Positions 15,779 through 24,256 of a stretch of 64,000 bases of DNA are shown here, in pieces. Positions within the stretch are counted from its first letter, which is position 1, and each line of letters opens with the position of its first letter. The stretch comes from Candidatus Palauibacter rhopaloidicola (GTDB lineage: Bacteria; Gemmatimonadota; Gemmatimonadetes; Palauibacterales; Palauibacteraceae), in assembly GCA_026914155.1 (NCBI GenBank), contig JAPPGH010000022.1, positions 1-64,000 on the forward strand, written 5' to 3'. Both the position numbers and the translations under genes were made by a program. Under the pieces are notes generated by a model. It was given only the letters and a program-made list of their open reading frames with translations, had not been told where the DNA came from and did no database searches.

Positions 15779-16849
15779 ATGCCGGCGTTCACGGTCGCCG
15801 ATCTCGCGCGTCGCGTGGGCGCGGACGTACTGGGGGATCCCGACCGCCGGTTGACCGGAGTGGCCTCACTCGAGGTGGCCGGTCCGGAGGACCTCGGATT
15901 CTTCGCCCGCGAAGCGATGCGGGAGGCCGTCCGCGGGACACGGGCGGGGGCGGTGTTGACCCCGCGCAGCTTCGAGCCGGGCGCCGTCCGGTTCAGCGTC
16001 CTGAAGGTCGACGACCCCCAACTCTCCTTCGCCAGGATCGTGCGGCTGTTCCATCCGGAGCCGGCGCCGCCGCCGGGGATCCACCCCTCCGCCCGGGTCG
16101 CCGAGGGGGCGCGGATCGGCGAGGCGGTGTCGCTGGGCGCGGGGGTGGTGGTGGAGGACGGAGCCCGGGTCGGGCGCGGGACGTGGGTGGGGCCGGGGAC
16201 GCTGATCGGCCGTGGAGCCCGGATCGGGGCGGACTGCCGGCTCGGCCACGCCGTCTCCATCCTCCACGGCGTGGAGGTGGGCGACCGCGTGCGCGTCCAC
16301 GCCGGCGCGCGCCTCGGGACGGATGGCTTCGGGTACGTGCCGGGGCCGGACGGGGCGCACAAGGTGCCGCAGATCGGCGGCTGCGTGATCGGAGCGGATG
16401 TCGAGATCGGCGCCAACTGCACGATCGACCGCGGTGCGCTCGACGACACGCGGATCGGCGACCGGACCAAGCTCGACAACCTCGTGCACGTGGGACACAA
16501 CGTGCGGATCGGGAGCGACTGTCTCATCGCCGCGCACGTCGGCATCGCGGGAAGCTGCGACATCGGCGACGGAACGCAGTTCGGCGGCCAGGCGGGCGTG
16601 GCCGGCCACCTGACGATCGGAGCCGGCGCGCGCATCGCGGGTCAGACGGGCGTCGTGCAGGACGTGCCCCCGGGAGCGGAGGTGGGAGGAACGCCTGCTC
16701 GGCCCCAGCGGTCGTGGCTGAGGGAAGCCGCACACCTGAGCCGCCTGCCGGATCTCTTCCATCGCGTCTCCAGCCTCGAGCGGCGGTCGGACGCCGACGA
16801 GGATGAGGGGCACATCCGACGGGACGGGCCGGACGATGTAGGCGCTTGA
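15779..16849 (+). CDS. lpxD: UDP-3-O-acylglucosamine N-acyltransferase LpxD
   Basis: A 356-aa left-handed beta-helix acyltransferase with an N-terminal uridine-binding domain (about 1-100) followed by hexapeptide repeats (GARIGEAVSLGAGVVVEDG and onward). The catalytic pair lies in NLVHVGHNV (H237 and H240, near E. coli His239). It adds the N-linked acyl chain in lipid A synthesis. The stop overlaps lpxC (TTGA). Neighbours lpxC, fabZ and lpxA give the common lpxD-lpxC-fabZ-lpxA order. Confidence 0.95.
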   Translation: MPAFTVADLARRVGADVLGDPDRRLTGVASLEVAGPEDLGFFAREAMREAVRGTRAGAVLTPRSFEPGAVRFSVLKVDDPQLSFARIVRLFHPEPAPPPGIHPSARVAEGARIGEAVSLGAGVVVEDGARVGRGTWVGPGTLIGRGARIGADCRLGHAVSILHGVEVGDRVRVHAGARLGTDGFGYVPGPDGAHKVPQIGGCVIGADVEIGANCTIDRGALDDTRIGDRTKLDNLVHVGHNVRIGSDCLIAAHVGIAGSCDIGDGTQFGGQAGVAGHLTIGAGARIAGQTGVVQDVPPGAEVGGTPARPQRSWLREAAHLSRLPDLFHRVSSLERRSDADEDEGHIRRDGPDDVGA

Positions 16850-17694
16850 CGCCGAAACAGCGCACGATCGCGCGGGCCGTGGAGGTCCGCGGGTACGGAA
16901 TACACACGGGCGAGCCCTCTGTCGTCAGCCTCCGCCCCGCTCCCGAACACGGCGGGCTGCGCTTCCGCCGCACCGATCTCCCCGGCGCGCCGGAGATCCC
17001 CGCCACGGTGGGGTCCGTGCATTCCGCCCACCGTGAGACCGCCCTCCGGCAGGGTGAAGCCGTGGTTCGCACCGCCGAACACGTGCTGGCCGCGGCGCAC
17101 GGGTTGGCGCTCGACAACCTGTGGATCGACGTCGCCGGGCCCGAACCTCCCGCGCTCGACGGGAGCGCCGCCGCGTGGTGCGACCGGCTGCTGGACGCGG
17201 AGCCCATCGCGCAGGAGGCGGAGGCGCCGTGCCTCCGGATCGACGACCCCCTGCATCTGAACATCGGGGGGACCCGGTACGATGTCCTGCCCGCGGAGGC
17301 CGGCCGCGTCTCGGCGACGATCGACTTCGACCACCCTCTCATCGGGCGGCAGTCCGCCAGCGCGCGCCTGGACCCCGTGGAGTTCGCGCGGGAGATCGCG
17401 CCGGCCCGCACCTTCGGCCTGTCCGCATGGGCGGAGGCGCTGCGGGAGCGGGGACTCGCGCTCGGAGCGACGCGGGAGAACACGCTCGTCCTCTCCGGAG
17501 ACGGGCTTGAAGCCGGACAGGAACTCCGTTTCCCCGACGAGTTCGTGCGCCACAAGATTCTCGACATCATCGGCGACCTCGCACTCGTGGGCGCGAGGCT
17601 GCAATGTCATGTGGTCGCGGAACGACCGGGACATCGCGGCAACCTGGAACTCGCCCGCCGGCTGGCAACCCTGTGCCGGGGCCGGGAGGGGTGA
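16846..17694 (+). CDS. lpxC: UDP-3-O-acyl-N-acetylglucosamine deacetylase LpxC
   Basis: A 282-aa zinc deacetylase, the committed step of lipid A synthesis. Zinc ligands appear as H79 (TAEHVLAA), H236 and D240 (HKILDIIGD), with the general-acid H263 in GHRGN. The GIHTGEPSVVSL opening is typical. The start is a TTG overlapping the lpxD stop; it places the protein at normal length. This is a stand-alone LpxC, not fused to FabZ as in Bacteroidota, although fabZ follows directly. Confidence 0.95.
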   Translation: MTPKQRTIARAVEVRGYGIHTGEPSVVSLRPAPEHGGLRFRRTDLPGAPEIPATVGSVHSAHRETALRQGEAVVRTAEHVLAAAHGLALDNLWIDVAGPEPPALDGSAAAWCDRLLDAEPIAQEAEAPCLRIDDPLHLNIGGTRYDVLPAEAGRVSATIDFDHPLIGRQSASARLDPVEFAREIAPARTFGLSAWAEALRERGLALGATRENTLVLSGDGLEAGQELRFPDEFVRHKILDIIGDLALVGARLQCHVVAERPGHRGNLELARRLATLCRGREG

Positions 17695-17725
17695 GGGGCT
17701 CGCCTGACAAGAACGAGGAAGGGTG

Positions 17726-18154
17726 ATGGACGTCACCGAAATACTGAACATCCTCCCGCACCGGTATCCGATGCTCCTGGTGGACCGCGTGCTCGAGATC
17801 GAACCGGGACAGCGAATCGTCGGCCTGAAGAACGTGAGCGCGAACGAACCGTTCTTCGCCGGGCACTTCCCCGGCCGTCCCGTGATGCCGGGGGTGCTCA
17901 TCATCGAGGCGCTCGCCCAGTGCGGGGGCGTCCTCCTGATGAGCGGCCTGCAGGACCCCGAGGACAAGGTCATCTACTTCCTGTCGGTGGACGGCGTGAA
18001 GTTCCGGCGGCCCGTCATCCCCGGAGATCAGCTGATCCTCGAACTCGACCTCGTTCAGGGGCGGGCCCGGCGCGGCAAGCTGAAGGGGATCGCGCGGGTC
18101 GACGGCAGGGTCGCGGCGGAGGCCACGATTCTCGGACAGGTCATGGACCGGTGA
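17726..18154 (+). CDS. fabZ: 3-hydroxyacyl-ACP dehydratase FabZ
   Basis: A 142-aa hot-dog-fold enzyme of fatty-acid elongation. Active-site H47 lies in AGHFPGRPVMPG and E61 in IIEALAQ; LPHRYPMLLVDRV is the usual N-terminal block. ATG 17726 is chosen because GAGGAAGG sits about 5 nt upstream; a GTG one codon earlier is also in frame. FabZ shares its substrate, hydroxyacyl-ACP, with LpxA and LpxD, which explains the clustering. The stop overlaps lpxA (GTGA). Confidence 0.95.
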   Translation: MDVTEILNILPHRYPMLLVDRVLEIEPGQRIVGLKNVSANEPFFAGHFPGRPVMPGVLIIEALAQCGGVLLMSGLQDPEDKVIYFLSVDGVKFRRPVIPGDQLILELDLVQGRARRGKLKGIARVDGRVAAEATILGQVMDR

Positions 18155-19005
18155 CCTCGGCCGGCTACGCTCCGGGGCGCCACGCGACGGCCGTCGTCGA
18201 TGCGTCGGCGAGCATCGCCTCCAGCGCCACGGTGGGCCCGTACACCGTGATCGGCCCCGACGTGGAGGTCGGCGAACGGGTGCGGATCGGCCCGCACGTG
18301 CTCATCGAACGGGATACGCGCGTGGCCGAGGATGTGCGCATCGCCAAGGGGGCCGTCCTGGGTTCGGACCCGCAGGACCTGAAATACGCGGGGGAACGCA
18401 CCTTCCTGGAGATCGGACCCCGCACGGTCGTGCGCGAGTTCACGACGCTGAACCGGGGGACGGCCGCGAGCGGCCTGACTTCGGTCGGGGCGGACACGCT
18501 CGTGATGGCCTATGTGCACATCGCCCACGACTGCCTCATCGGAGATCACGTCGTGCTCGCGAACGGCGTGACGATGGGGGGACACGTCGAGATCGGGGAC
18601 TGGGGGATTGTCGGCGGCCTGACGGGCATCCACCAGTTCACGCGCATCGGCCGGCACGCGATGGTCGGTGGAGGTGCGCGCGTGTCGCGGGACGTCGCGC
18701 CGTACACGCTCGTCGGGGGAGGCCGGACCCGCACGTACGGCGTCAACCGCATCGGCCTCGAACGCCGGGGCTTCGAGCCGGACGCCATCCGCGCCCTCCA
18801 GGCCGCCTACCGGACGATCTTCCGGTCGGGCGAACCCCTCCGCGCGAGTCTCGATCGCGTCCGGCGGGGGGACATGACCCCTGAAGTGCGGGAACTCGTG
18901 GAGTTCATCCGCGGTTCCGAGCGCGGCGTGACCCCCACCCGCGTCGGACCGGACGACGACCTGCCGCCGGAGCCGCGCGAGGCGAAGACCCGGTCCGCCG
19001 TGTGA
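18151..19005 (+). CDS. lpxA: UDP-GlcNAc acyltransferase LpxA
   Basis: A 284-aa hexapeptide-repeat acyltransferase, the first lipid A enzyme. Catalytic H126 lies in YVHIAHDCLIGDHV (E. coli His125). FLEIGPRTVVREFTTLNRG and the TYGVNRIGLERRGF block of the C-terminal domain are characteristic. It is slightly longer than E. coli LpxA (262 aa), with an Asp/Pro/Glu-rich tail (about 262-284). GTG 18151 overlaps the fabZ stop; its own stop overlaps the oxidoreductase (GTGA). Confidence 0.95.
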   Translation: MTSAGYAPGRHATAVVDASASIASSATVGPYTVIGPDVEVGERVRIGPHVLIERDTRVAEDVRIAKGAVLGSDPQDLKYAGERTFLEIGPRTVVREFTTLNRGTAASGLTSVGADTLVMAYVHIAHDCLIGDHVVLANGVTMGGHVEIGDWGIVGGLTGIHQFTRIGRHAMVGGGARVSRDVAPYTLVGGGRTRTYGVNRIGLERRGFEPDAIRALQAAYRTIFRSGEPLRASLDRVRRGDMTPEVRELVEFIRGSERGVTPTRVGPDDDLPPEPREAKTRSAV

Positions 19006-19976
19006 GTCGGATCCCGGCCGGCGTCGTCGGCGTCGGGAAGCTGGGTGCCGAGCACGCCCGGCTCCTGGCGCAGAGCGACGCGTTCGAACTGGAGGGGGTC
19101 CACGACCGGTCGGCCGCGCGGGGGAAGGAGGTCGCGGACGCGCTGTCCGTGCCGGCCTTCGCGGAGGCGGAGGCGCTGCTCGACCGCGTCGATGCCGTCG
19201 TCATCGCGGTGCCCACCGTGGCGCACCACAAGGCCGCGAGGACCGCGCTCCGGGCGGGGTGCCACACGCTGGTCGAGAAGCCGCTGGCCTCGAGCCTGGC
19301 GGAGGCGGACGAGATTCTCGCGCTGGCGGAGGCAGCGGGCGTCGTCCTCGGCGTGGGACACGTCGAGCGTTTCAACGGCATCCTCCTCGCCGCGGATCCG
19401 TGGCTGGACCGGCCGCGGTTCATCGAGTCGCTGCGCATGGCGCCGTTTCAGGCTCGCGGGGCGGACACCACGGTGATCCTGGATCTCATGATCCACGACA
19501 TCGACCTCGTCCTCACGCTGACGGAGGCGCCGCTGGCGGACGTGCGCGCGGTGGGCGTGCCCGTCATTTCCCCGCGGATCGACCTCGCCAACGCACGGCT
19601 CTCCTTCGAGGACGGCACTGTGGCGAACATCACCGCGAGCCGCGTGGCGCTGAAGGCGCTGCGGAAGCTGAGGTTGTTCCAGCGCTCCGGGTACTTCAGC
19701 TTGGACCTGGCGGCCGAAACGGGACATCACTACCGGCGGCGCGATCCGCGGACCGGGGCCGCGATCGCGGGAGTGGAGGCCATGGTGGAGCCTGTGCCGC
19801 TGGAAGCTTGCGGCGGCGAGGCGCTCGCCCGGGAGATCGAGGCCTTCGCCGACGCGATCGCAGGACGTCCGAGCCGCCTGGTATCGGGTCGCGCGGGCAG
19901 GGAAGCGCTGGAAGTCGCGATCCGGATCACCCGCGAAATCGAGGAGTTCGTTCATGTCGTTGCTCAAGATCCGTGA
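19002..19976 (+). CDS. Gfo/Idh/MocA-family NAD(P)-dependent oxidoreductase in the lpx operon
   Basis: A 324-aa sugar-dehydrogenase-like protein. The Rossmann start AGVVGVGKLGAEHARLL, the EKP motif in LVEKPLASSLAEAD and the GHVERFNGI and MIHDIDLVL segments are family hallmarks. Members oxidise or reduce sugars, often UDP-sugars. Between lpxA and lpxB it occupies the slot where many bacteria keep lpxI. A UDP-GlcNAc 3-dehydrogenase (GnnA-like) role is possible, but the partner aminotransferase GnnB is not here. The substrate is unknown. GTG 19002 overlaps the lpxA stop. Confidence 0.85.
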   Translation: MSRIPAGVVGVGKLGAEHARLLAQSDAFELEGVHDRSAARGKEVADALSVPAFAEAEALLDRVDAVVIAVPTVAHHKAARTALRAGCHTLVEKPLASSLAEADEILALAEAAGVVLGVGHVERFNGILLAADPWLDRPRFIESLRMAPFQARGADTTVILDLMIHDIDLVLTLTEAPLADVRAVGVPVISPRIDLANARLSFEDGTVANITASRVALKALRKLRLFQRSGYFSLDLAAETGHHYRRRDPRTGAAIAGVEAMVEPVPLEACGGEALAREIEAFADAIAGRPSRLVSGRAGREALEVAIRITREIEEFVHVVAQDP

Positions 19977-20088
19977 GGAGCGGAAGAAGCTCGGAGGGGC
20001 GGTCAAGCGGGGACCCCGGACCCTGGTCCTCCTCATTCTCCTTGCGCTCGTCCTCATGCTGATGGCCTACCTCGGCCGGGTGTCCTGA
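19954..20088 (+). CDS. Single-pass membrane microprotein (44 aa) inside the lpx operon
   Basis: A short frame from ATG 19954 to TGA 20086-20088, overlapping the oxidoreductase end by 23 nt. The product has a basic N-terminus (MSLLKIREERKKLGG), then one hydrophobic helix (TLVLLILLALVLMLMAYLG, about 23-41). By the positive-inside rule the N-terminus is probably cytoplasmic. No family is recognised. Reasons to call it: it fills the gap exactly between two operon genes, and its stop forms CTGA with the probable lpxB start. It could anchor or regulate a lipid A enzyme; that is a guess. Confidence 0.7.
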   Translation: MSLLKIREERKKLGGAVKRGPRTLVLLILLALVLMLMAYLGRVS

Positions 20089-21257
20089 CCCCGGATCCGC
20101 CTCCGCGGGCGGCGATCTTCATCTCCGCCGGCGAGTCCTCGGGGGACCACCACGGCGCCGCGGTCGCGCGGGAGATCCGCCGGAAGCTGCCCGGTGCGAG
20201 GCTGTTCGGGATCGGCGGCCGCGAGATGGACGCGGCCGGAGTGTCGAGGATCGCCGGACTGGACGAGTTGTCGGTCATGGGGGGTACGGAGGTGCTGCGG
20301 CGCCTGCCGGGCTTCCTTCGGCTGGAGCGCAGGATCCGGCGCCTCTTCGCGAGGGAGGATGTCCGTCTGTTTCTGCCGATCGACTACCCGGGGCTGAACC
20401 TCCGGCTCGCCCGGAGCGCCCGGCGGCAGGGGCGGCGGGTGCTCTACTACATCGCGCCCCAGGTGTGGGCCTGGCGGGAGGGCCGCGCCCGGAAGCTGCG
20501 GCGCGACTGCGACCGCGTGCTCACCGTGCTCCCGTTCGAAGCGGCGCTGCTCGAGCGGCACGGCGTGCGCGCAGAGTTCGTCGGGCACCCGCTCCTCGAC
20601 GCGCCGCGCAATCCCGAAGGCGCCGCCGGGGCCCGCCCGGCCGCGGGGCTCAGCACGCCCGGAACGAACAGGGTGGTGGGGCTCTTCCCGGGATCGCGGG
20701 CGCAGGAGGTTCGGTGCATGCTGCCGGTCTTCGCGGAAGCCGCGCGGCGACTCGCGCGGCGGCATCGGGATCTCGACTTCATCATCGCGCGCCCGCCGCA
20801 CCTCCCGGAAGCGCTCTACTCGGAAGCCGGCTTCCCGACCGCGGGAGCGCGCGAGGCGACGGCACGGTCCTGGGCCGCCCTCACGAAGTCGGGCACGATC
20901 ACGCTCGAACTCGCGCTCGCGGGCGTGCCGATGGTCGTGGGCTACCGCATGAGCCGAGTGGAGTGGGCCATCGGCCGGCGGCTCGTGCGCGTTCCCTCCA
21001 TCGTGCTCGTCAACCTCGTGGCCGAGGCCCCGGTCGTCCCCGAATTCCTCCAGGACGGGCTGACGGCCCGACGCGCGGCAGGGGCGCTCGAGGCGCTCCT
21101 CGACGAGGGAGCGCCGGCGCGGCGCGAGATGCTGCGCGGCTTCGACGTCGTACGCGAGCGGCTCGGGAAGCCGGGGTGCGCGGCCCGGGTCGCGGGGCAC
21201 GCGGTCCGACTGCTGGCGGGCCGGGACTCCGCGCGGGGGGCCGGGGCGACGTGTTGA
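20085..21257 (+). CDS. lpxB: Lipid-A-disaccharide synthase LpxB
   Basis: About 390 aa (E. coli 382). GT19-family blocks: SAGESSGDHHG near the N-terminus, IAPQVWAWREGR, VGHPLLD, LFPGSRAQEV and KSGTITLELALAGVPMVVGYRMS. It joins two acylated glucosamines to form the lipid A disaccharide. The first ATG/GTG/TTG in frame is ATG 20226, which would delete the SAGESSGD motif. The open frame extends upstream to a CTG at 20085 that forms CTGA with the microprotein stop, so CTG initiation is inferred. The stop overlaps the next gene. Confidence 0.93.
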   Translation: MTPDPPPRAAIFISAGESSGDHHGAAVAREIRRKLPGARLFGIGGREMDAAGVSRIAGLDELSVMGGTEVLRRLPGFLRLERRIRRLFAREDVRLFLPIDYPGLNLRLARSARRQGRRVLYYIAPQVWAWREGRARKLRRDCDRVLTVLPFEAALLERHGVRAEFVGHPLLDAPRNPEGAAGARPAAGLSTPGTNRVVGLFPGSRAQEVRCMLPVFAEAARRLARRHRDLDFIIARPPHLPEALYSEAGFPTAGAREATARSWAALTKSGTITLELALAGVPMVVGYRMSRVEWAIGRRLVRVPSIVLVNLVAEAPVVPEFLQDGLTARRAAGALEALLDEGAPARREMLRGFDVVRERLGKPGCAARVAGHAVRLLAGRDSARGAGATC

Positions 21258-23023
21258 GCGCGCGCCGCATCCCGCTGGGCATCGCCGTCCGGCTCGTGCG
21301 GGCCGCCCTGCCCATCAGCCGGACATGGCGCTTCCGGGACCCGGACGACCCCGGCCGACCGTATCGGCCTCTGCTGAAACACGAGATCCACGCGTGCTGG
21401 CACGAACACCTCCTTCCGCTCACATGTCTCCTCGCGGGCCAGGAACTCGCTACGCTCGCGAGCCGCGACCGCGATGGCGAGATCATCTCGCGTGTCCTCC
21501 GGCGCCTCGGGTACGACGTGGCGCGCGGCTCGAGCAGCCGCGGGGGTTCGGCCGGCTTCCGCCAACTGGCCCGCTCCTTCGCCGCGGGACGCGGGGTGAT
21601 TCTCACGGGGGACGGGCCGCGCGGCCCGCGGCGGTCGCTGAAGGAAGGCACGGCGCGCATCGCGAAGCTGACCGGCAGCGCCGTGACCGTGGTGGGCGTG
21701 GCGGCCTCCTCGGGCCGGCGCCTCCCGAGTTGGGATCGCTTCCTCGTCCCCGCCCCCGGGGCCACCGTGTTCGTCTCGCTCGCGCCCGTCGCCGCGGGCC
21801 ACGCGCCGCGCACGGGAGACATACAGTCGGCGCTCCGGCGCGAGGTGGCGCGCTGCGAGCAGGCGGCCGGCGAGGCCCGCTGGTCCCGTCCTCCGGGAAT
21901 CGTACGGGGCAGCAGGGAGGCCGCGCGCAGGGGGGCCGCGCGGGACGCTTCGGCGCGGACCGGCCTCGGGGCTTCGGCGCGGCGCTCGCTCGAACTCCGC
22001 CTCCGCGGACAGTGGCGCCGTCCGCGCGCGGCGCTCCCGCTGAGGGGTCTGGCCCGGGTCTACGGAGGCGTCCACGAAGGCCGGCATCGCCTCTACGATC
22101 TCGGCCTCCTCCTCGCGCACCGCGCCGGCATCCCCGTGATATCGGTCGGCGGCGCCACGGTCGGGGGAAGCGGCAAGACGCCGCTTGCCGCCTGCATCGC
22201 GCGTACGCTTCGCGAGGCCGGACATCGCCCGGCCATCCTCGCGCGCGGATACGCCGACGAACTCGAGCTGCTCGGACACGAGGCGCCCGGAGCGTCGATC
22301 CGCGGCCACCCGGACCGGCTCCGGTCGGGGCGGCGGGCCGCGGCGGAGGGAGCGACGGTGGCCATCGCCGACGATGGCTTTCAGCATCGCCGTCTCTTCC
22401 GCGACCTGGACCTCCTCGTCCTCGACCGGGACGCCCTTCGCCGCACGAACGGGGCGCGACTCCCGGCCGGGCCGTTTCGCGAGCGCTGGGAACGCGCCGT
22501 CGGCCGCGCGGACGCGATCATCGTCACCGGACGGGAGCCCTGGACGGCCGACCTGTCCCGTTTCGACGGCGAACTTGGGGTCCGCCTCGGGCGTCTGGCC
22601 CCCGGCGTTCCGGTCGCGACGGCGGTGTTCGGGCACGGGCCCCTCGAGGCCGCCAGCGCGGGGGCGCGCGGCGGGTCCGGACCGCCGGCCCCCCGGCTCG
22701 CCTTGACCGGGATCATGAAGCCCAATCTCTTCTTCGCGCAGGCCGGCGCCGCGTGCGCGTCGGTTCGGGAGCGCCTCGCGCTGAGCGATCACGGGATCCC
22801 ATCGCAGCGGGAGCGGACGGCCGCGATCCGGGCGGCGGGGCGGGGCGGCGTGCTCACCACGCGCAAGGACCTCTCCCGGCTCCGCCCGCTCTTCGACCCG
22901 GGCCTGCCGATCTGGATACTCCCCGAGACTCTCGCATGGAAGGCCGGCTGGGACGACGTGAGCCGCCTGATTCTCGATGTGGCATCGGGCCGGAAGGGCC
23001 GTGATCCGGCGGTCGAGGGGTGA
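21251..23023 (+). CDS. Fusion: DUF374 (LpxJ-type) acyltransferase + LpxK lipid A 4'-kinase
   Basis: A 590-aa two-domain protein. Residues about 1-215 match DUF374: HACWHEHLLPL, SRDRDGEIISRVLRRLGYDV, RGSSSRGG, GDGPRGPRRSLKEG and the SWDRFLVPAPG strand. The characterised DUF374 protein LpxJ is a lipid A late acyltransferase. Residues about 265-590 match LpxK: ALPLRGLARVYGG, Walker A VGGATVGGSGKTP (about 297-309), DDGFQHRRLFRDLDLLVLD and GIMKPNLFF. A low-complexity Arg/Ala linker joins them. One chain could acylate and phosphorylate the disaccharide made by LpxB. Start: GTG 21251 or TTG 21254 (TTGA with the lpxB stop); both are plausible. Confidence 0.9.
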   Translation: MLSARRIPLGIAVRLVRAALPISRTWRFRDPDDPGRPYRPLLKHEIHACWHEHLLPLTCLLAGQELATLASRDRDGEIISRVLRRLGYDVARGSSSRGGSAGFRQLARSFAAGRGVILTGDGPRGPRRSLKEGTARIAKLTGSAVTVVGVAASSGRRLPSWDRFLVPAPGATVFVSLAPVAAGHAPRTGDIQSALRREVARCEQAAGEARWSRPPGIVRGSREAARRGAARDASARTGLGASARRSLELRLRGQWRRPRAALPLRGLARVYGGVHEGRHRLYDLGLLLAHRAGIPVISVGGATVGGSGKTPLAACIARTLREAGHRPAILARGYADELELLGHEAPGASIRGHPDRLRSGRRAAAEGATVAIADDGFQHRRLFRDLDLLVLDRDALRRTNGARLPAGPFRERWERAVGRADAIIVTGREPWTADLSRFDGELGVRLGRLAPGVPVATAVFGHGPLEAASAGARGGSGPPAPRLALTGIMKPNLFFAQAGAACASVRERLALSDHGIPSQRERTAAIRAAGRGGVLTTRKDLSRLRPLFDPGLPIWILPETLAWKAGWDDVSRLILDVASGRKGRDPAVEG

Positions 23024-23496
23024 CGCGGATCCTCGTGGCTTCGGTCGGGCGGAACCGGGCGACCCCTCTTCGAAGGGCGACGGAGGAGTACGAGGACCGG
23101 CTGCGCCGGTACATCCGGTTCGAGTCGGTCGTCGTCGACCCCGCCCGGCTTCCCGATGCGCGCGCCGCGGAGGCGCGGGAGCGGGAGGCCGCGGCCCTCG
23201 AGCGGCGGCTCCCCGACGAGCTGGACCTCATCGCGCTCACGCGCGAGGGCCGGTGCTGGACCACGCGGGCCCTCGCGGACTACCTCGACAACCTGCGGAC
23301 GTACGGACGGCCCGGAGCCGCGTTCGCGATCGGCGGGGCCCACGGGCTCGCCCCGCGGCTGCTCGCCCGCGCGCGGAAGAGGCTCGCGCTCTCGGCCATG
23401 ACGCTCCCGCACGAGGTGGCCCGACTCGTCCTCACGGAGCAGCTCTACCGCGCGGCCACGATTCTCCGTGGCGAGCCGTACCACAAGGGCCCCTGA
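23020..23496 (+). CDS. rlmH: 23S rRNA (pseudouridine-1915-N3)-methyltransferase RlmH
   Basis: A 158-aa SPOUT methyltransferase (E. coli 155 aa). The knot region FAIGGAHGLAPRLLARARKRLALSAMTLP is split here by its key points: IGG-x-x-G for SAM binding and the LSAMTLPHEVARL block, followed by EQLYRAATI and the terminal PYHKG. It methylates pseudouridine 1915 in 23S helix 69. GTG 23020 overlaps the LpxK stop (GTGA), so it rides on the lipid A operon without an obvious functional link. Confidence 0.94.
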   Translation: MTRILVASVGRNRATPLRRATEEYEDRLRRYIRFESVVVDPARLPDARAAEAREREAAALERRLPDELDLIALTREGRCWTTRALADYLDNLRTYGRPGAAFAIGGAHGLAPRLLARARKRLALSAMTLPHEVARLVLTEQLYRAATILRGEPYHKGP

Positions 23497-23503
23497 GCGG
23501 CCC

Positions 23504-24256
23504 GTGAGCGGACCCACGGGCGCCCCCGCCGAATGGTTCAGGGACTGGTTCGGCCGAGCCTACCTCGAACTGTATCCACATCGGGATGAGGAGGAAGCCG
23601 CCCGGGCCGTCGCGCTCTACCGCGACCGCGCGGGACTCCCGCCCGGCGCCCGCGTGCTCGACCTCGCCTGCGGCGCGGGGCGGCACCTGCAGCGCCTCCG
23701 CGCGGCGGGGCTGCGGGCGGTCGGGATCGACCTCTCCGCTCCGCTCCTCGATGCGGCGCGAACGCGCCCGGGCTTGGACGGAGCCCTCATCCGCGCGGAC
23801 ATGCGCGGGCTCCCCTTCGCCACCGGGGCGTTCGACGGTCTCGTGAATTTCTTTACCTCCTTCGGCTACTTTCTCACGCCGGAGGAGGATGTCGAGGTCC
23901 TGCGGGAGATCCGGCGCGTGCTGCGGCCCGGCGCCCCCTTCCTGATGGACTATCTGCACGCGGCCTGGGTCATCGACCGCCTCGACCCCGAGTCCGTGGG
24001 CGAGATCAACGGAACGCCCGTGAAGCAGACGCGGTGGGTGGAGGGAGACCAGGTCTTCAAGCGAATCGAGATCGGCGGCGCCGGGGGCCGGGAGCCGGAA
24101 GTCTATCACGAGCGCGTGCGCCTCTATTCCCCGGAAGCGCTGCGCACGCTCCTGCGCGAGCAGGGGCTCGAGGCGACGAACGCCTTCGGCGCGTATGACG
24201 GGGCGCCGTTCCGGAGCGACTCGGCTCGCCTTCTCCTGCTGGGACGGACCCTTTGA
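23504..24256 (+). CDS. Class I SAM-dependent methyltransferase
   Basis: About 250 aa. Motif I is VLDLACGAGRHLQRL, motif II region VGIDLSAPLLDAA, with an ADMRGLPFATGAFDGLVNF segment typical of the Methyltransf_11/25 group. The target is unknown; it is not close to UbiE or BioC in any feature I can see. Start: GTG 23504, 8 nt after the rlmH stop, is preferred; an in-frame GTG at 23468 would overlap rlmH. Its stop overlaps bshC (TTGA), hinting at a link to bacillithiol or thiol metabolism, without proof. Confidence 0.85.
   Translation: MSGPTGAPAEWFRDWFGRAYLELYPHRDEEEAARAVALYRDRAGLPPGARVLDLACGAGRHLQRLRAAGLRAVGIDLSAPLLDAARTRPGLDGALIRADMRGLPFATGAFDGLVNFFTSFGYFLTPEEDVEVLREIRRVLRPGAPFLMDYLHAAWVIDRLDPESVGEINGTPVKQTRWVEGDQVFKRIEIGGAGGREPEVYHERVRLYSPEALRTLLREQGLEATNAFGAYDGAPFRSDSARLLLLGRTL

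What the first reader, a model, noticed from the sequence alone, without database searches (positions are those of the whole stretch)
21251..23023. Lipid A late acyltransferase (DUF374/LpxJ type) fused to LpxK kinase
One open frame carries an N-terminal DUF374 domain and a C-terminal LpxK domain, both with their main motifs. DUF374's characterised member, LpxJ, adds a secondary acyl chain to lipid A; LpxK phosphorylates the disaccharide made by LpxB, encoded just upstream. A fused enzyme could acylate and phosphorylate in one place and might act in an unusual order (acylation without Kdo). I know no described fusion of this kind, though I cannot search.
Basis: partly seen in the sequence, partly recalled or inferred. 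Interest (0 to 1): 0.7.

Follow-up and report, generated by a model that had tools for sequence, protein, structure and literature searches.

The report
Fused lipid A acyltransferase and kinase
In a genus of marine bacteria, two neighbouring genes that finish the endotoxin anchor (one adds a phosphate, one adds a fatty chain) have merged into one protein, and a distant group in the same phylum seems to have made the same merger separately, which points to the two steps being done together.

Summary
Confirmed. Window 21251-23023 (+) is one 590-residue open frame with an N-terminal DUF374 (LpxJ-type) acyltransferase domain and a C-terminal LpxK 4'-kinase domain, both far above Pfam cut-offs. It is no frameshift or assembly error: in 17 of 17 genomes examined of the genus (Candidatus Palauibacter, Gemmatimonadota; the window's own included) the two domains share one frame without a stop. 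Residues needed for catalysis in both enzymes are kept. The predicted structure matches solved LpxK well and a PatA-type acyltransferase weakly. The fused gene holds the only LpxK and DUF374 matches of the window's genome; single WaaA and LpxL-type genes lie elsewhere. Relatives outside the genus in which both were seen keep two genes. A second set of fusions occurs in 4 of 6 genomes of another class of the phylum; a tree needs two changes and a single fused clade is rejected. Best reading: a bifunctional enzyme that phosphorylates 4' and adds the secondary chain at 3' of the same glucosamine. Activity, acyl position and order relative to Kdo are inferred. No description was found in the papers searched. 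New variant of a known kind.

The parts
21251..23023 (+). fused gene, 590 aa: DUF374/LpxJ-type acyltransferase - linker - LpxK
   Evidence: one open frame; Pfam and NCBIfam; same frame in 17 of 17 genus genomes examined
21251..21865 (+). N-terminal acyltransferase domain, residues 1-205; W50 H51, D75, D121, W161 D162 correspond by order and spacing to the residues needed in Rickettsia LpxJ (W60 H61, D86, D132, W172 D173)
   Evidence: PF04028; invariant in the 16 aligned fusions of A1; mutants from PMC6148475 section 9
21866..21991 (+). linker, residues 206-247 (borders chosen by me), low-confidence and variable in length
   Evidence: pLDDT below 50 at 212-241; gaps in multiples of 3, median dN/dS 0.53; no in-frame ATG/GTG/TTG from codon 200 to 295
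21992..23020 (+). LpxK domain, residues 248-590; K309 T310 (P-loop), D336 E337, D374 D375, H514, K539 correspond to Aquifex LpxK K51 T52, D99 E100, D138 D139, H261, K280
   Evidence: PF02606; alignments to 4EHX/4EHW; all invariant in the 10 diverse fusions of A3
20085..21257 (+). lpxB, directly upstream; its TGA (21255-21257) lies within GTGTTGA at the start of the fused gene; probable CTG start
   Evidence: PF02684 1e-68 for the part from the first ATG, 20226; translation of the longer frame; CTG seen in 14 of 16 genus genomes examined
15779..19005 (+). upstream lipid A genes: lpxD-like hexapeptide gene (15779-16849), lpxC (16846-17694), fabZ-like (17723-18154), lpxA (18139-19005)
   Evidence: ORFs; LpxC family match at this place; lpxA TIGR01852; lpxD and fabZ named from reading the translations, not searched

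Best explanation
A bifunctional, membrane-associated lipid A enzyme made by fusion of two adjacent operon genes. Shown: one open frame, both domains, both sets of catalytic residues, conservation in 17 of 17 genus genomes examined, no second LpxK or DUF374 match in the window's genome. Inferred: the LpxK domain phosphorylates the 4'-hydroxyl of the tetraacyl disaccharide-1-phosphate made by LpxB (the gene just upstream), giving lipid IVA. The DUF374 domain then, or at about the same time, moves an acyl chain from acyl-ACP onto the hydroxyl of the 3'-linked acyl chain of the same distal glucosamine, so that LpxB product is passed locally through two steps. WaaA (Kdo) and LpxL (2' chain) act as separate enzymes. 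The order of phosphate, acyl and Kdo is unknown; LpxJ precedent allows acylation before Kdo.
For: Pfam over cut-offs. 17 of 17 genus genomes examined fused, 48-213 nt between the two domain hits, no stop between. Median dN/dS 0.21 (DUF374) and 0.29 (LpxK) over 66 pairs of 12 of the 17 genomes, so both domains are constrained. LpxK residues map to Aquifex LpxK and are invariant in 10 diverse fusions. LpxJ residues H51, D75, D121, W161, D162 are invariant there too and W50 in at least 90%. Foldseek: six Aquifex LpxK chains rank first (E 2.4e-16 to 2.8e-15); the acyltransferase PatA 5F2Z is tenth (E 4.5e-5). Only LpxK and DUF374 matches of the own genome. A second fused clade.
Against: No activity data. 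The model is moderate (pLDDT 77, pTM 0.57) and domain packing is undetermined; the PatA match is weak (TM by target 0.42, rmsd 10.7, aligned range not shown), and HypB and other P-loop proteins match at similar E-values. The LpxJ residue mapping is by order and spacing, not by alignment to a characterised LpxJ. One genus member (G012) has a second LpxK, in an MsbA-like ABC transporter-LpxK frame on a 10-kb contig that may be foreign; PF02606 was searched in the own genome only. Internal initiation of an LpxK-only product cannot be excluded (rival 1). The DUF374 enzymes described in the passages I read come from other phyla.
Confidence: 0.75

Rival explanations
1. The frame is shared but an LpxK-only protein is also (or mainly) made by internal initiation, so the fusion is partly a by-product of two genes without a stop between them.
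For: 12 of 17 genus genomes have an in-frame ATG/GTG 54-62 aa before the P-loop, about where a free LpxK would start. The neighbouring lpxB seems to start with CTG, and the window's gene has in-frame CTG codons 264 and 267, 41 and 38 codons before the P-loop, so non-standard starts are possible.
Against: The window's own gene and two more species (G008, G009) have no ATG/GTG/TTG between codon 199, inside the acyltransferase, and codon 296 (291 in the other two), just before the P-loop. Without a stop codon the full-length protein is expected in any case. Linker dN/dS is 0.53 and its gaps are in threes.
Confidence: 0.15
2. The DUF374 domain is no longer an enzyme but a membrane anchor or regulator for LpxK.
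For: The hydrophobic N-terminal stretch of LpxK is weaker in Palauibacter (median best 19-aa hydropathy 0.14, highest 0.82, n=17) than in 142 LpxK not fused to DUF374 (median 1.26; 21 of 142 at or below 0.82), as if the N-domain had taken over anchoring.
Against: The residues needed in LpxJ are kept across both fused clades (W50 in at least 90%); dN/dS 0.21. Unfused relatives of the same family are already low (0.53-1.03, n=6) and the other fused clade keeps a hydrophobic stretch (1.18-1.79, n=4).
Confidence: 0.08
3. The acyltransferase domain works on another acceptor or position (2' chain, or a different lipid) rather than the 3' chain of lipid A.
For: DUF374 belongs to a broad acyltransferase superfamily; the nearest solved acyltransferase fold is PatA. 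Position cannot be read from sequence.
Against: Genes of lipid A synthesis surround it, and it is joined to LpxK. The genome has a separate LpxL-type gene, expected to make the 2' chain. The LpxJ enzymes of Helicobacter, Campylobacter, Wolinella and Rickettsia act on the 3' chain (PMC6148475, PMC6286764, passages).
Confidence: 0.15
4. Assembly or sequencing error joining two genes.
Against: 17 of 17 genomes of the genus examined agree. The named public records L033-L035 are fused too but have the contig lengths of G015, G008 and G004, so they are probably the same assemblies.
Confidence: 0.01

Closest known systems
LpxK, tetraacyldisaccharide 4'-kinase (PF02606, TIGR00682; Aquifex structures 4EHX, 4LKV)
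   Same: fold, P-loop, mapped catalytic residues
   Different: carries an acyltransferase domain in front. The short loop between RGY and DE is shared with unfused relatives of the class, so it is not due to the fusion.
LpxJ / DUF374 late acyltransferase (PF04028; Helicobacter, Campylobacter, Wolinella, Rickettsia)
   Same: domain, the residues found essential by mutation (by order and spacing), lipid A gene context
   Different: the passages read (PMC6148475, PMC6286764) mention no second domain; here the C-terminus is an LpxK
Other fusions of lipid A genes: lpxC/fabZ (PMC3087551, passage), WaaA-LpxK in an Acidobacteria record, L103, ABC transporter-LpxK in L221
   Same: two proteins of lipid A assembly joined in one frame
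   Different: different pair of domains

Membership tests
LpxK (PF02606 / TIGR00682) | profile score over curated cut-off | tested here: met
   167.5 against 27 bits; TIGR00682 96.4 against 91.95 bits; a further LpxK model, NF001892, is not passed (50.6 against 327)
LpxK (PF02606 / TIGR00682) | P-loop K/T, D99-E100, Walker B D138-D139, H261, K280 (residues from PMC6286764 passages) | tested here: met
   K309 T310, D336 E337, D374 D375; H514, K539 by way of a fused relative; invariant in A3
LpxK (PF02606 / TIGR00682) | LpxK fold | tested here: met
   Foldseek to Aquifex LpxK, TM by target 0.66-0.70, rmsd 5.4-6.1
LpxK (PF02606 / TIGR00682) | 4'-kinase activity | not testable with these tools
   needs an assay
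DUF374 / LpxJ (PF04028) | profile score over curated cut-off | tested here: met
   73.8 against 26.8 bits
DUF374 / LpxJ (PF04028) | W-H, D, D, W-D residues needed for acyl transfer; no HX4D/E at the catalytic His | tested here: met
   W50 H51, D75, D121, W161 D162; spacing 24/46/40/1 against 25/46/40/1 in Rickettsia LpxJ; the residue five after H51 is P56. Mapping by order and spacing only.
DUF374 / LpxJ (PF04028) | acyltransferase fold | tested here: inconclusive
   PatA 5F2Z found at E 4.5e-5 but with TM by target 0.42 and rmsd 10.7; aligned range not shown
DUF374 / LpxJ (PF04028) | adds the secondary chain at 3' of lipid A | not testable with these tools
   needs mass spectrometry
LpxL/LpxM/LpxP (PF03279) | Lip_A_acyltrans profile | tested here: not met
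   no PF03279 hit at E <= 0.001 in the protein; the genome has one such match elsewhere

The most novel reading that the evidence does not exclude
The fusion fixes an unusual order of lipid A maturation: the disaccharide leaves LpxB and is phosphorylated and given its 3' secondary chain by one protein before WaaA adds Kdo, so that penta-acyl, Kdo-free lipid A is the normal substrate of WaaA in Palauibacter and in the second class, an order reached twice independently.
Probability: 0.3. Interest if true: 0.6.

Novelty: new variant of a known kind. Interest (0 to 1): 0.42.

Why it matters
Gene fusions often mark proteins that work together. Two apparently separate mergers of the same two genes suggest that LpxK and the LpxJ-type acyltransferase act one after the other on the same sugar. 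My searches showed no work on the order of late lipid A steps in Gemmatimonadota: of 19 papers holding the phylum name and lipid A, 12 were listed; one reports Kdo2-lipid A genes as common there (PMC11651109, passage), and the Palauibacterales paper has no mention of lipid A in its text (PMC10469786). The fused protein lets the order (phosphate, acyl chain, Kdo) be tested on one molecule, and its context supports reading DUF374 in this phylum as a lipid A enzyme.

Tried and rejected
Rejected: frameshift or assembly error (17 of 17 genomes examined). Rejected: fusion as a general feature of the phylum. Of 220 loci held (many overlapping or from the same genome), 40 are fused, all from the genus or the second class; 104 have separate genes, 69 LpxK only, 1 DUF374 only, 6 neither. 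In the 93 unique separate pairs, 89 have the LpxK domain between 200 nt before and 400 nt after the DUF374 stop, so the fusion most likely arose from neighbours. Rejected: the short RGY-DE loop as a fusion trait. Not pursued: domain packing in the model. A repeat scan of 20000-24000 gave only short imperfect matches, up to 36 nt.

Limits of the survey: the profile A1 used on 395 phylum genomes did not show the second class as spanning hits, and its list was cut, so other distant fusions may have been missed. Searches covered 39, 245 and 296 genomes of three other groups (37, 190 and 219 with a match). No listed match spans both domains without a stop, but a fusion can also appear as two rows, and the lists were cut. 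Only loci actually fetched were checked for frames. The open_frame column reads through stops in some rows (G397: 588 there, two frames), so I relied on my own stop-to-stop frames. The tree uses 12 of the 21 fused genomes and 45 separate loci chosen by me (46 named, one with a short LpxK dropped), with a quick search.

Full report
What is there. Window 21251-23023 on the + strand is one open frame of 590 residues starting with GTG inside the overlap with the stop of lpxB. Pfam finds DUF374 (PF04028, 73.8 bits, cut-off 26.8) at residues 63-127 and LpxK (PF02606, 167.5 bits, cut-off 27) in two stretches, the better one at 336-564. NCBIfam's TIGR00682 lpxK is passed narrowly (96.4 against 91.95 bits); NF001892, another LpxK model, is not (50.6 against 327). 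The next gene, rlmH (23020-23496), starts in the stop overlap. Upstream lie lpxC, lpxA, a Gfo/Idh oxidoreductase and lpxB; lpxD and fabZ I named from reading the translations.

Is it real. The protein was searched in 40 relatives; 37 had a match. The 16 relatives of the genus and the window's own genome, 17 of 17, have the DUF374 and LpxK parts in one frame with no stop between them, 48-213 nt apart; the TGA seen in one of them (L016) is its terminal stop. The genus name comes: L033 and L034 are records of Candidatus Palauibacter poriticola and P. denitrificans, and L035 is titled Gemmatimonadetes bacterium. All three are fused, and their contig lengths equal those of G015, G008 and G004, so they are probably the same assemblies and add names, not evidence. 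In 12 of the 17 genomes the only gaps against the window's gene are 9, 15, 18, 21 or 87 nt, all multiples of three, and median dN/dS over 66 pairs is 0.21 in DUF374, 0.53 in the linker and 0.29 in LpxK. So the frame is very probably translated through the linker, and both domains are under constraint.

Internal start. The window's gene has no ATG, GTG or TTG between codon 199 and codon 296, and G008 and G009 are alike (codons 199 and 291). Twelve of the 17 genus genomes do have an ATG or GTG 54-62 codons before the P-loop. As lpxB itself seems to use CTG, and the window's gene has CTG codons at 264 and 267, an extra LpxK-only product cannot be ruled out.

Active sites. LpxK catalytic residues (named in PMC6286764, passages) were mapped through alignments to the Aquifex structures: K51/T52, D99/E100 and D138/D139 to K309/T310, D336/E337 and D374/D375; H261 and K280 through a fused relative to H514 and K539. 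All are invariant in the ten diverse fusions of alignment A3. For LpxJ, mutation of W60, H61, D86, D132, W172 or D173 in the Rickettsia enzyme abolished activity (PMC6148475, section 9). The window has W50 H51, D75, D121, W161 D162 with nearly the same spacing. All are invariant in alignment A1 (16 of the 17 genus rows; one row nearly identical to another was left out), and in A3 all but W50, which is in at least 90%.

Fold. AlphaFold2 on A1 gave pLDDT 77.2 and pTM 0.57, with a disordered linker at 212-241. Foldseek against solved structures returned six Aquifex LpxK chains first (E 2.4e-16 to 2.8e-15), then two chains of a cyclic diphosphoglycerate synthetase and HypB, then the mycobacterial acyltransferase PatA (tenth, E 4.5e-5, TM by target 0.42, rmsd 10.7); many other P-loop proteins follow. 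The aligned range is not shown; that PatA matches the N-terminal part is my inference. How the domains pack is not determined.

Place in the genome. In the window's genome LpxK matches only in this gene, and there is one match each for DUF374, WaaA and the LpxL family; the last three counts hold in each of the 17 genus genomes. LpxK by family was counted in the own genome only. The protein search showed a second LpxK-like place in G012. It lies in a 905-codon frame behind an ABC transporter of MsbA type, on a 10-kb contig that may be foreign. A second match in G005 was not listed and not followed. In the window's genome the fused gene is thus the only candidate for both steps, and lipid A with up to two secondary chains is predicted.

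Distribution. With the fused profile, 369 of 395 sampled phylum genomes matched. In the same family but outside the genus, five genomes (G017, G020, G022, G329, G361) show both domains, in separate frames; G018 and G367 show LpxK only. In another class of the phylum, sampled with 6 genomes, 4 (G040, G041, G043, G047) are fused in single frames of 615-821 codons; G042 has LpxK at a contig end and G045 no match. Pfam confirms both domains in three of these (G047 was not put through Pfam). In three further groups, of 39, 245 and 296 genomes, no fusion was seen in the listed matches, two of these lists being cut. Of 80 named loci, 24 have both genes apart, 53 LpxK only, 3 fused. A tree of 57 rows (12 fused, 45 not) puts Palauibacter fusions inside their own family next to unfused genes, and the other class elsewhere. 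Two changes are needed, and one fused clade is rejected (p-AU 0.0006, quick tree). Two separate fusions are the simplest reading.

How it probably works. LpxB makes the disaccharide; the LpxK domain phosphorylates its 4'-OH; the DUF374 domain adds a chain to the 3'-linked acyl group of the same sugar. The two positions are neighbours, which makes joint handling plausible. Three unfused LpxJ enzymes did not require Kdo (PMC6286764, passage); for the Rickettsia one this was not tested (PMC6148475, passage). The order in this protein is unknown.

Known or new. Both domains are ordinary members of known families. The combination was not found in the paper library in searches for DUF374 with LpxK or fusion, LpxJ (12 papers listed, two of them opened), LpxK with fused/bifunctional, lpxK/lpxB with gene fusion and PF04028 terms; most hits were seen as listings only, and protein databases were not searched for annotation. 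lpxC/fabZ fusions are on record (PMC3087551, passage), so fusion within this pathway is a known kind of event.

Noticed in passing
window 20085-20088: lpxB has no ATG/GTG/TTG at its conserved N-terminus; a CTG, in the window within a CTGA overlap with the preceding stop, is seen at this place in 14 of 16 genus genomes examined; G013 has ATG there, the start was not found in G005, and G001 was not examined. Probable CTG start.
   Followed up: partly
window 19954-20088 (+): 44-aa open frame with one hydrophobic, probably membrane-spanning stretch between the Gfo/Idh gene and lpxB, nearly identical in 12 close genus genomes and recognisable in G003; not found by the same script in G012 and G013. 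Function unknown.
   Followed up: partly
genomes G021, G150, G195, G322, G390 (genus g6, same family): No match to the fused DUF374-LpxK profile, nor to WaaA, LpxL or DUF374 families, in 5 of 5, and no LpxC in 4 of 5, a partial LpxC match in G150: this sister genus seems to have lost LPS. Completeness is 82-90%.
   Followed up: partly
L103 2561-5038 (Acidobacteria record JAPUIV010000281.1): 826-codon frame joining WaaA (PF04413) and LpxK (PF02606): another lipid A fusion.
   Followed up: no
L221 3-2717 (G012:C34): 905-codon frame joining an ABC transporter (PF00664, PF00005; MsbA-like by context) and LpxK, without DUF374, on a 10-kb contig of a genus member; possibly a contaminant.
   Followed up: partly
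L174, L188-L194 (phylum of the Neomarinimicrobiota record L040): DUF374 and LpxK lie in the same frame with exactly one TAA between them in 8 genomes.
   Followed up: partly
window 19002-19976 (+): Gfo/Idh oxidoreductase between lpxA and lpxB; best NCBIfam match UDP-GlcNAc 3-dehydrogenase, 160 bits, below its cut-off of 450. Position recalls GnnA of amide-linked lipid A (recalled).
   Followed up: no
G000:C48:736-1224: The own genome's WaaA scores 181 bits while 13 of 17 genus members score 102-113; it may be a foreign or contaminant contig (contamination 6.11%).
   Followed up: no
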